Origin: Metabacillus litoralis
GTDB lineage: Bacteria > Bacillota > Bacilli > Bacillales > Bacillaceae
Direction of reading: 5' to 3'
DNA: 64,000 bases
NCBI RefSeq assembly: GCF_003667825.1
Contig: NZ_CP033043.1
Span: forward strand, 4,032,001-4,096,000
Shown: positions 25,466 through 27,510 of the stretch, one piece after another
Numbering within the stretch: the first letter of the stretch is position 1
Layout: the number at the start of each line of letters is the position of its first letter
The notes under the pieces: generated by a model
What the model was told of the DNA's origin: nothing
Databases searched by the model: none
Seen by the model: the letters and a program-made list of their open reading frames with translations, nothing else
Program-made: the position numbers and the translations under genes

Positions 25466-26062
25466 TTATTTATTCATACTCGCCAAAAAGTCACCTAAAA
25501 GATCACTTAAATCTTCCTTTGATTCATCCTCTATCGTAGCAGCAACTTCATTTTCTGTAGGAAAGATATCAAAATCAGCAATATCATCTTCAAGTGCATT
25601 TACTGCTATACTCTCTTCTTCTTCATTCTCTACCTGATTAACAGAGAAATGTTCCACCTCTACATCCATCGGGGCATTTTCAACTTCCTGTAAATACAAA
25701 GCTTCATCTATATCCAAGGAATTACTCGTTAACGAAGCTAATATAGATGTTGCTCTGACTGGATCAGATAATAGTTGATAAACAATACTTCCCATTAGTG
25801 CCTCTGAATGAGAGTGCTTTAGCCAATTTCGTTGATCTTTTGATAATTGCTTTGGCAGAGGAAGTGTAATCATTTCTTTCTCTTTTTTTAATGAGCTGCC
25901 CACTCCTTCTAATACAAAATCAGCAATTGTACTAGAAAAGTTTCTTTTCTCCGTTTGTTTAAGTTTGTCCAGTTGTCTTACTAAATGATCAGGGGTATCA
26001 GAGGGAAGGCGAAAGGTAATAGCCTGTCCCCTTTTTATGGTTGGTGTGCCCTTTTTATTCAT
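25466..26062 (-). CDS. ParR-like ribbon-helix-helix partner of the actin-like protein
   Basis: About 198 residues; the start at 26062 (MNKKGTPTIKRG) follows GGGTGG. The N-terminus AITFRLPSDTPDHLVRQLD followed by NFSSTIADFVLEGV has the strand-helix-helix spacing of ribbon-helix-helix DNA-binding domains such as ParR. The middle is unassigned. The last 90 residues are very acidic and end in DLSDLLGDFLASMNK, a likely helical tail that could bind the filament, as the C-terminus of ParR does. It lies 18 bp downstream of the ParM-like gene, the usual parM-parR order. Sequence identity to known ParR proteins is not obvious; the call rests on fold pattern and context. Confidence 0.72.
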   Translation of the reverse strand: MNKKGTPTIKRGQAITFRLPSDTPDHLVRQLDKLKQTEKRNFSSTIADFVLEGVGSSLKKEKEMITLPLPKQLSKDQRNWLKHSHSEALMGSIVYQLLSDPVRATSILASLTSNSLDIDEALYLQEVENAPMDVEVEHFSVNQVENEEEESIAVNALEDDIADFDIFPTENEVAATIEDESKEDLSDLLGDFLASMNK

Positions 26063-26080
26063 ATAACCACCCAATTTTAA

Positions 26081-27253
26081 TTAGACTGTTTGTTTTTCAT
26101 TCTTTTTCGGAGGCTCGCTAGTTTTTCTGACAAAATCGGAAACTAATTTATAATAAGCATTTGCCATCATCCAAATACTTTCGTTTTCATCTTCAAAAAA
26201 CTCAATATTATAGCCATCTAAACTATTATTTAACATCTTAATATAGTCTTTTAGAACAATGGCACCTCCACCAACAAAATAGCAGATTTCTGTTTGTGAA
26301 TTTTTTTGCCATACGTTTCGTAGATGACGGTACTGTTTCTTAGCAAGCTCTAGAAGAATGCGGTCGGTGATATCATGTACGTTTGTCCGACTACCCTTTA
26401 CCATGATGTGGTGACGGTCATTTTTACGTGTAATAATATCAACCACATCTCGGCGGCTGTCGAGTTCAACACCATGCTTTTTTCGGATTTCTTCTCTAAT
26501 AGCTTCTAATGACTCTGAAACACCAAGATTAAAGCCCTGCGCTTTGTCATCATCAACATTACGATTTTTAATGACAGCAATATCCGTTGATAAGCCGCCA
26601 ATATCTTGAATTAATATTTGCTTATCAATTAAATCACGATTGATAATCTTTAAATCTTTGTCCATAACTAGATTAATAAATGCAGCAAATCCTTCTGGAT
26701 ACACCTTCACTTCGTCAAACTTAATATTTACTTTTAAACCTTGATATTTAGGAGTCACTAAAAATTCAACTTGATGAACAGATCCGAGAAGCTGTGAGCG
26801 ATAGCCAACGTCTTTGCCTTCCTTAACTTCACGAAGTGGTAAACCTGTTCCTAACGTATAATTTGCATCAATAACATTATTGGTTTTTTTGAAAATAGAC
26901 GAGTTTTCTTCTCGAACGGCATCTAATGCAAGGGTAGTAAAAAGCATAACAAGTGTCTGATCTTCTTCTGATTTTGTACTACCAGGATCTAGCTCACTAG
27001 GGTTATCACTTTTTGTTGCGAGGTTACCAACTCGATAGATTGCATTGTTATCCTTCAGGGCAGGGGAGTGAACTCTTACATGAATACCATCTAATGGATC
27101 TTTATCATTTAATTCTTCTATACCGATGACTGGTCGGTCCTCGGTGTCTCTTGCAATAACATTAGGGATATATAATTCGTAATCTACTTTTCCAAAAAGT
27201 GCCTTCACACAATCATTTCCAACATCAACTGCTGTAATTCTAGTTTTACTCAT
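26081..27253 (-). CDS. Actin-like ParM/StbA-family segregation protein
   Basis: 390 residues. Actin-fold ATPase motifs are in order: phosphate-1 TAVDVGNDCVKALFGK near the N-terminus, phosphate-2 LIQDIGGLSTDIAVIKN near 215, and adenosine motif CYFVGGGAIVLKDYI near 340. Such proteins polymerise and push replicons apart through a ParR-bound centromere. Related proteins (ParM, AlfA, Alp7A) are mostly plasmid-borne, whereas here all neighbours are chromosomal genes. The likely operon is this gene plus the ParR-like gene. A phased repeat array upstream (27373-27510) is the candidate centromere. Confidence 0.9.
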   Translation of the reverse strand: MSKTRITAVDVGNDCVKALFGKVDYELYIPNVIARDTEDRPVIGIEELNDKDPLDGIHVRVHSPALKDNNAIYRVGNLATKSDNPSELDPGSTKSEEDQTLVMLFTTLALDAVREENSSIFKKTNNVIDANYTLGTGLPLREVKEGKDVGYRSQLLGSVHQVEFLVTPKYQGLKVNIKFDEVKVYPEGFAAFINLVMDKDLKIINRDLIDKQILIQDIGGLSTDIAVIKNRNVDDDKAQGFNLGVSESLEAIREEIRKKHGVELDSRRDVVDIITRKNDRHHIMVKGSRTNVHDITDRILLELAKKQYRHLRNVWQKNSQTEICYFVGGGAIVLKDYIKMLNNSLDGYNIEFFEDENESIWMMANAYYKLVSDFVRKTSEPPKKNEKQTV

Positions 27254-27280
27254 CTAACCATCCCTCTCTATTTCATTCAT

Positions 27281-27310
27281 GAGTTACTAAATCAGTGAAT
27301 CTAGTAACTC
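27281..27310 (-). promoter_or_regulatory. Inverted repeat in the parM leader
   Basis: GAGTTACTA (27281-27289) and TAGTAACTC (27302-27310) are perfect 9-bp arms around a 12-base loop, between the repeat array and the parM start codon. No T run follows, so an operator or mRNA structure is more likely than a terminator. Confidence 0.55.
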
Positions 27311-27372
27311 AAGGGTAAAGGGTAGGGGAGACAAGCGTCAATATTACTTTCGTTGTGTTCAATTTGAATACA

Positions 27373-27510
27373 TGTACACAATTTTGTCTACATTTGTAAC
27401 AAAATTGTATACATACCTATATGACGCGGTGTATACGTATTTGTACACATGTAAACACTATTGTAAACACCACGTACACAATATGTATACATGTATACAG
27501 TGACGTATAC
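27373..27510. repeat. Putative parC centromere: 12-copy NGTANAC array
   Basis: Heptamers of the TGTATAC/TGTACAC/TGTAAAC type start at 27373, 27385, 27395, 27406, 27430, 27442, 27450, 27462, 27473, 27484, 27492 and 27504. Most spacings are 10-12 bp, that is, about one helical turn, with one double step and two 8-bp steps. The array sits directly upstream of the ParM-like gene, where ParR-binding centromeres of actin-type systems lie. Confidence 0.75.

What the first reader, a model, noticed from the sequence alone, without database searches (positions are those of the whole stretch)
25466..27510. Chromosomal actin-type partition cassette with a phased centromere-like array
Seen: a ParM-like actin ATPase gene, an 18-bp-spaced downstream gene with a ribbon-helix-helix-like N-terminus and acidic tail, and, directly upstream, twelve NGTANAC heptamers (27373-27510) mostly 10-12 bp apart. 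Known: type II systems use the order parC-parM-parR, with ParR binding helically phased repeats. Inference: this is a complete ParMRC-like module sitting among housekeeping chromosomal genes without replication, integrase or transposase genes. It could act in chromosome-linked segregation, be a relic of an integrated plasmid, or have been re-used to move something else.
Basis: partly seen in the sequence, partly recalled or inferred. Interest (0 to 1): 0.82.

Follow-up and report, generated by a model that had tools for sequence, protein, structure and literature searches.

The report
Origin-linked chromosomal actin partition cassette
A three-part actin-based DNA-moving system of the kind plasmids use to divide themselves sits on the main chromosome of this bacterium and many of its relatives, near the replication origin wherever that could be measured, which suggests that it helps to segregate or position the chromosome, although this has not been tested at the bench.

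Summary
In detail: a ParM/Alp7A-type actin gene (27253-26081), a ParR-like gene 18 bp downstream, and an upstream array of 11 GTANAC sites (27374-27510). It is not a recent plasmid relic. The window lies on a 5.23-Mb chromosome with dnaA and ParABS genes. Orthologues occur in 201 of 397 genomes of the order; plasmid relatives reach 43.5% identity. The actin is about as conserved as DnaA (83.4% vs 84.2% mean identity, 35 genomes). Gene, partner and array travel together while flanking genes turn over. In 53 of 53 genomes with at most 4 contigs the cassette lies 36-288 kb from dnaA, on the same side and in the same orientation; three control genes stayed within 290 kb in 14 of 38 cases. Of 48 matches to the array pattern in 26 genomes, 46 lie at the cassette. 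Best reading: an old, mainly vertically inherited type II (ParCMR) system acting on the origin region. Chromosome-encoded ParMs are in print (PMC12270681); I found no report of this origin-linked family. Filaments, ParR binding and phenotype are untested, and many relatives, B. subtilis included, lack it.

The parts
26081..27253 (-). parM-like actin ATPase gene, 390 aa (Alp7A/ALP_N domains)
   Evidence: orthologues in 201 of 397 genomes of the order, own genome included
25466..26062 (-). parR-like gene, 198 aa from the ATG (a TTG at 26074 is an alternative start): conserved N-terminal half (RGQAITFRLPSDTPDH...), acidic variable linker, near-invariant C-terminal DDLLGDFLAxMNK-type end
   Evidence: alignment of 36 relatives; a ParR match in the same locus as the actin in 153 of 153 loci, which include duplicate fetches of some genomes; helices at 25-37, 42-61 and 185-196 in a low-confidence model
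27374..27510 (.). centromere-like (parC-like) array: 11 GTANAC/GTNTAC sites
   Evidence: 79 of 81 loci have at least 6 sites in the 420 bp upstream and the other two (L055, L107) have arrays displaced further upstream; in G000 the 12-8 pattern matches 3 times, all here
27337..27342 (-). putative -35 element (ATTGAC), about 30 bp downstream of the array in the direction of transcription
   Evidence: ATTGA in 20 of 20 rows of the alignment, by eye; for coordinates
27314..27319 (-). putative -10 element (TTTACC; TATAAT/TATACT-like in several relatives)
   Evidence: alignment; inference

Best explanation
This is a mainly vertically inherited chromosomal type II partition system (ParCMR-like) that acts on the origin region of the main chromosome. 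ParR dimers (inferred ribbon-helix-helix) bind the phased GTANAC array about 106 kb from dnaA and form a curved complex. The conserved C-terminal peptide of ParR captures ParM filament ends. ATP-driven growth of the filaments then pushes or positions the two newly replicated array copies, and with them the sister origin regions. It works beside Soj/Spo0J/parS and SMC, not instead of them. Shown here: gene content, order, array, near-uniqueness of the array in the genomes searched, conservation, retained distance and orientation to dnaA. Inferred: ParR binding, filaments, force, and any effect on segregation.
For: Domain homology to ParM/Alp7A. Order array-parM-parR with a promoter-like site after the array. 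ParR match in 153 of 153 loci, duplicates included. Array pattern in 21 cassette-bearing and 5 cassette-free genomes: 48 matches, 46 beside the cassette, 0 in the 5 without it. Orthologues in 201 of 397 genomes of the order and in 8 genomes of two further families among 398 genomes of the class. Actin about as conserved as DnaA over 35 genomes, distances congruent, Mantel r 0.55, 0 of 2000 permutations as high. dnaA distance 36-288 kb, median 95, same side and opposite strand to dnaA in 53 of 53 genomes of 18 family codes, against 14 of 38 within 290 kb for three control genes of the window in genomes outside the genus. Flanking gene families not kept: the commonest neighbour family is in 15 of 81 loci.
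Against: No function has been tested. The system is dispensable: 7 of 21 genomes of the genus lack it, about half of the order lacks it, and the 14 named control genomes have no PF22128 protein (B. subtilis is among the controls named). G007 has its actin frame split. ParABS is present in the same chromosome. The 53 genomes are related, so the counts are not independent; only three control genes were run and one (pepT) is itself often near dnaA (8 of 13). In one search the reversed control pattern gave 38 matches (places not shown) against 48, so the count alone is no excess; only the location speaks. Within the own family DnaA is more conserved than the actin. ParR fold and binding are unproven. 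The array could serve gene regulation only.
Confidence: 0.58

Rival explanations
1. A domesticated actin-adaptor pair whose array is mainly an operator for its own promoter, and whose filaments do another job (cell shape, membrane or spore organisation) with the DNA link used only for regulation.
For: The array sits directly upstream of the promoter-like site. In 4 of the 5 plasmid cassettes read, short paired motifs lie around the -35 by eye, as operators do. A bacterial actin with a cell-shape role is reported for a filamentous cyanobacterium (PMC12645912, title and abstract start in the listing).
Against: 6-18 sites upstream of nearly all actins, clear of the -35, are more than an operator needs. 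Some species carry 2-4 arrays. A purely regulatory element does not explain the retained distance to dnaA.
Confidence: 0.2
2. A chromosomal cassette that acts on plasmids: it stabilises resident plasmids in trans, or its centromere interferes with incoming plasmids that carry related ParMRC systems.
For: Related ParMs (36 of 72,556 plasmid records) occur in plasmids of the same bacterial groups; PMC12270681 does not rule out help to plasmids (Discussion).
Against: All plasmid ParMs found are under 60% identical; the motifs and ParR tails of 5 plasmids differ; array and genes are chromosomal and co-conserved; position near dnaA would not matter for this.
Confidence: 0.08
3. Position near dnaA is a by-product of general gene-order conservation in this part of the chromosome and says nothing about function.
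For: Control pepT also lies within 290 kb of dnaA in 8 of 13 genomes outside the genus; genomes are related; three controls are few.
Against: ahpF 3 of 9 and purU 3 of 16 stay that close, against 23 of 23 for the cassette in the same set of genomes; near neighbours of the cassette are not conserved.
Confidence: 0.2
4. Relic of a recently integrated plasmid, prophage or other mobile element.
For: ParMRC is typical of plasmids; G014 holds a decayed extra copy; a prophage actin system exists in Corynebacterium (AlpAC, listing).
Against: Order-wide orthologues with an actin about as conserved as DnaA; no match in 50,697 phage records; plasmid relatives at 43.5% or less; no mobile genes recognised in the window.
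Confidence: 0.03

Closest known systems
Chromosome-encoded ParMs (cParCMR): Dh-cParM1, Cb-cParM, Bt-cParM, Mt-cParM (Ali et al. 2025, PMC12270681)
   Same: ParM-type actin plus a ParR-like gene on a chromosome, highly conserved among related species; authors propose roles beyond plasmid partition and show filaments for two of them.
   Different: Here the family spans many family codes of one order, carries a recognisable multi-site array in nearly every locus examined, and keeps its place near dnaA; the parts of that paper I read (outline with abstract and start of the introduction, sections 4, 5, 13, found passages) report no link to the origin. Whether Bt-cParM1/2 of B. tropicus are orthologues could not be tested here. 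Dh-cParM1 itself is only a weak sequence match (E 0.06).
Alp7A/Alp7R of Bacillus plasmids and the ParM/StbA plasmid ParMs of Bacilli
   Same: Same Pfam domains; same gene order; ParR N-terminal halves 31-40% identical on 5 plasmids.
   Different: 43.5% identity at best for the actin; the 5 plasmid ParRs read are 133-151 aa with other acidic ends, and have 0-5 GTANAC sites instead of an extended array.
ParM-ParR-parC of plasmids R1 and pSK41
   Same: parC upstream, actin, then small DNA-binding adaptor (recalled); R1 ParM is the best PDB sequence match.
   Different: Weak sequence match (E 0.0016); chromosome, not plasmid; ParR matches no solved ParR by sequence.
AlpAC-alpS of the Corynebacterium glutamicum prophage CGP3 (PMC5539076, PMC4446434; abstract starts in the listing)
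   Same: Actin, DNA-binding adaptor and binding sites carried on a chromosome.
   Different: Part of a prophage and tied to viral DNA replication; not compared by sequence here.
Soj-Spo0J-parS (ParABS) and RacA of B. subtilis
   Same: Chromosomal, act at sites clustered near oriC (recalled; ParABS genes found about 10 kb from dnaA here).
   Different: Unrelated proteins; ParA gradient or polar anchoring instead of actin filaments (recalled).

Membership tests
Type II (ParMRC) partition systems | ParM-type actin ATPase | tested here: met
   Alp7A_like_C 134 bits vs cut-off 22, ALP_N 35.7 vs 26.3; the ParM C-terminal model PF21523 scores 25.9, just under its 27.4 cut-off; PHROG 691
Type II (ParMRC) partition systems | Order centromere - parM - parR | tested here: met
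   ParR match in the same locus in 153 of 153 loci. One transcription unit is inferred from the 18-bp gap.
Type II (ParMRC) partition systems | ParR is a ribbon-helix-helix DNA-binding protein | tested here: inconclusive
   no family hit, AF2 pLDDT 64, no Foldseek match; homologous to the gene after parM on plasmids, one of which has a sub-threshold Arc hit, E 0.042
Type II (ParMRC) partition systems | Helically phased iterons upstream of parM | tested here: met
   best common period 10.8 bp, with a lesser peak at 9.8, no shuffled control for the period
Type II (ParMRC) partition systems | ParR binds the iterons | tested here: inconclusive
   ParRs with A16 (and T14) go with GCNNAC/GTNNGC-rich arrays (7 of 7 vs 12 of 122 others), but the tree needs only one change, so one event
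Type II (ParMRC) partition systems | ATP-dependent filaments, growth at ParR-parC | not testable with these tools
   needs biochemistry
Type II (ParMRC) partition systems | Carried by a low-copy plasmid that it stabilises | tested here: not met
   single 5.23-Mb contig with dnaA; all 36 plasmid records with a match are under 60% identity
Chromosome-encoded cParCMR (Ali et al. 2025) | ParM and ParR genes resident and conserved on chromosomes | tested here: met
Chromosome-encoded cParCMR (Ali et al. 2025) | Orthology to a cParM named there (Bt-cParM) | not tested
   the accessions could not be fetched with these tools

The most novel reading that the evidence does not exclude
A main bacterial chromosome that segregates or positions its origin region with an actin spindle: a dedicated centromere-like array and a ParM/ParR pair kept through much of a bacterial order on one side of oriC, missing from B. 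subtilis and therefore overlooked in the model organism. It would be the first type II system shown to act on a chromosome.
Probability: 0.5. Interest if true: 0.92.

Novelty: new variant of a known kind. Interest (0 to 1): 0.8.

Why it matters
[quoted passage not shown] This family gives a conserved, genetically accessible case with a defined array near dnaA in many cultured non-model Bacillales (names), so the question can be tested directly. It also warns that the B. subtilis picture of chromosome segregation (Soj/Spo0J, SMC, RacA; recalled) may be incomplete for many of its relatives.

Tried and rejected
Integrated plasmid or prophage: rejected on order-wide orthology, DnaA-like conservation and the plasmid and phage searches.

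Co-variation of ParR residues 14/16 with array motif: Fisher p 5e-7, but the tree needs only one change of the trait, and 12 of 122 other loci also have at least 4 variant sites. Rows dropped before that count: 153 loci to 129 (identical actins, actin pieces under 300 aa, upstream under 300 bp). Kept as a hint only.

Further arrays elsewhere in the chromosome: the 12-8 pattern has 2 of 48 matches away from the cassette (G014, G044); neither consists of GTANAC/GTNTAC sites throughout. The same call's control, the pattern read backwards, gave 38 matches over the 26 genomes, also in cassette-free ones, with places not shown; so the number 48 is no excess by itself. Sites with other spacing would be missed: of 21 cassette-bearing genomes, G136, G245 and G341 had no match and G044 only the one elsewhere, although one search shows arrays by looser counting for three of these four.

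Local array count was not made for loci held on the minus strand; look at other sets. One search used single-letter shuffles for the site number and no control for the period.

Orthologue counts were made by eye from its table (219 matches minus 18 with E above 1e-20); its list of places is cut, so identities of some orthologues were not seen. A decayed second copy in G014 matches at 47-58%, between the orthologues and the rest. The actin places of 8 genomes with few contigs were cut from that listing and looked up again, so that no genome with at most 4 contigs and an orthologue or 40 was left out of the 53. dnaA stands in for oriC. For genomes whose dnaA lies at a contig end the distance assumes a circular contig. 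Two DnaA rows (G203, G197) are C-terminal pieces, which slightly raises DnaA identity. purU rows include five at 51-56% identity that may not be orthologues; without them purU is 3 of 11.

Literature: searches (listings partly cut: 15 of 17, 10 of 46 and 8 of 20 papers shown). PMC12270681 was read in part (outline with abstract and start of introduction, sections 4, 5, 13, find passages); all other papers only as listings. Supplementary tables were not available; subscription papers (for instance the 2009 survey of bacterial Alps, recalled) are not held.

Full report
What is there. On the minus strand lie a 390-aa actin-like gene (27253-26081) and, 18 bp further, a 198-aa gene (26062-25466). 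Upstream, between 27374 and 27510, are 11 sites GTANAC/GTNTAC. The actin hits Alp7A_like_C at 134 bits and ALP_N over its cut-off and the phage 'partition protein' family PHROG 691. The best solved sequence relative is R1 ParM, weakly (E 0.0016). The second protein has no convincing family hit.

The set belongs together. In 81 loci (window plus 80 named ones) the actin and the ParR-like gene are the only gene families present in all; the next neighbour family (pepT) is in 15 of 81. A ParR match lies in the same locus as the actin in 153 of 153 loci, duplicate fetches of the same genomes included. Array sites number 893 in the 420 bp upstream of the 81 actins against a mean of 53 in single-letter shuffles (maximum 70 in 200 shuffles); 79 of 81 loci have 6-18 sites and the other two (L055, L107) have the array pushed further upstream. 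The commonest spacings are 12, 8 and 11 bp and the best common period is 10.8 bp, with a lesser peak at 9.8. A promoter-like ATTGA(C) with a TATAAT-like box follows the array in the 20 loci aligned. ParR has a conserved N-terminal half, a variable acidic linker and a C-terminal DDLLGDFLAxMNK-type end in which F192, M196 and N197 are invariant in the 36 rows. By analogy with R1 ParR (recalled) I take this tail as the ParM-binding peptide.

It is a chromosomal, inherited trait. G000 is one contig of 5,230,624 bp with one PF22128 match and dnaA. It also has ParA, ParB and a second ParB-type protein (soj, spo0J and noc by position, recalled) about 8-10 kb from dnaA, with ParA and ParB domains confirmed by Pfam and parS-like sites (recalled consensus). 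Orthologues (E below 1e-199) are in 201 of 397 genomes of the order and, among 398 genomes of the class, in 8 genomes of families f49 and f73 outside the order, where the next best matches are 44% identical. Identities seen run from 77% to 99%. Plasmids give 36 records of 72,556, all under 60%, best 43.5%; phages none of 50,697. The tree of 81 actins follows named genera better than shuffled labels (36 changes for all 22 groups, shuffled mean 54.9, 0 of 200 as low), though several genera are split, so some transfer is not excluded. Among 35 genomes, mean pairwise identity is 84.2% for DnaA, 83.4% for the actin and 61.5% for ParR; actin and DnaA distances correlate (r 0.55, 0 of 2000 permutations as high), but within the own family DnaA is the more conserved. 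Losses or absences are common: 7 of 21 genomes of the genus lack it, 10 of 10 listed genomes of genus g6 lack it, and PF22128 is in none of 14 named control genomes, among which names B. subtilis.

Position. In 53 of 53 genomes with at most 4 contigs (18 family codes) the actin lies 36-288 kb from dnaA (median 95; 45 of 53 within 150 kb), upstream of dnaA and on the opposite strand every time. Controls from the same window, in genomes outside the genus: pepT 8 of 13, ahpF 3 of 9 and purU 3 of 16 within 290 kb, together 14 of 38, against 23 of 23 for the cassette in that set of genomes (Fisher p 2.4e-7, not corrected for kinship). So the cassette is held near the origin more tightly than these three genes, while its immediate flanks turn over. 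Three controls are few, and a full null is still to be computed.

The array marks one place. The 12-8 triple pattern in 26 genomes gave 48 matches, 46 of them beside the cassette; the five genomes without cassette had none. The reversed control pattern gave 38 matches at places not shown, so it is the location, not the number, that counts. Some species have two to four arrays within a few kilobases (G009, G367, G386, G215, L095, L098). In G245 and Heyndrickxia the motif has drifted to GTTTGC/GCAAAC-like sites together with ParR residues 14 and 16, which in a ribbon-helix-helix would face the DNA (inference); this is one evolutionary event and only a hint.

Plasmid relatives differ. In five plasmids read the ParR is 133-151 aa with a different acidic end. 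The upstream has 0-5 GTANAC sites; by eye, short paired motifs lie around the -35 in four of the five. The chromosomal form has a longer ParR and an expanded array clear of the promoter.

Mechanism. ParR on the array, ParM filaments between sister arrays, sister origins moved apart or held: gene order and parts are shown; binding, filaments and force are inferred from the ParMRC family. Regulation-only and plasmid-directed roles remain possible. PMC12270681 describes chromosome-encoded ParMs, including Bt-cParM conserved on several Bacillus chromosomes, shows filaments for two others and says ParCMR has yet to be implicated in chromosome segregation. Whether Bt-cParM is this family could not be tested; in the parts I read, origin linkage is not reported. 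That I found no paper on this family rests on the searches, some with cut listings, in an open-licence library.

Verdict. A real, maintained and probably important system; a new variant of a known kind. Most of the remaining doubt is about what it does, not whether it exists.

Noticed in passing
L161:7597-8680 (G014): A decayed second actin copy, with a second array further upstream, lies next to the intact cassette in one genome of the genus, as after tandem duplication or replacement.
   Followed up: partly
L146:9286-10454 (G007): The actin frame is split in one otherwise nearly complete genome; sequencing error or real loss not decided.
   Followed up: no
L095, L098, L149, L138, L165, L172: Two to four GTANAC arrays within a few kilobases upstream of the actin, as if the centromere-like region had been multiplied.
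   Followed up: partly
L130 (G245), L111, L099, L135, L028, L155, L156: ParRs with T14/A16 instead of A14/T16 have arrays rich in GTNNGC/GCNNAC: possible co-evolution of adaptor and site.
   Followed up: partly
L105: A record titled Pseudomonas sp. ISL-84 carries the Bacillales cassette; probably a mislabelled or contaminated assembly.
   Followed up: no
window 27281-27310: Inverted repeat (gagttacta...tagtaactc) in the leader between promoter and actin start; not seen in the relatives aligned.
   Followed up: no
G009:C1:2895595-2896590, G033:C14:6101-7189: Second, more distant ParM-like actins (30% and 43% identical) elsewhere in genomes that also hold the cassette, perhaps plasmid- or element-type.
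   Followed up: no
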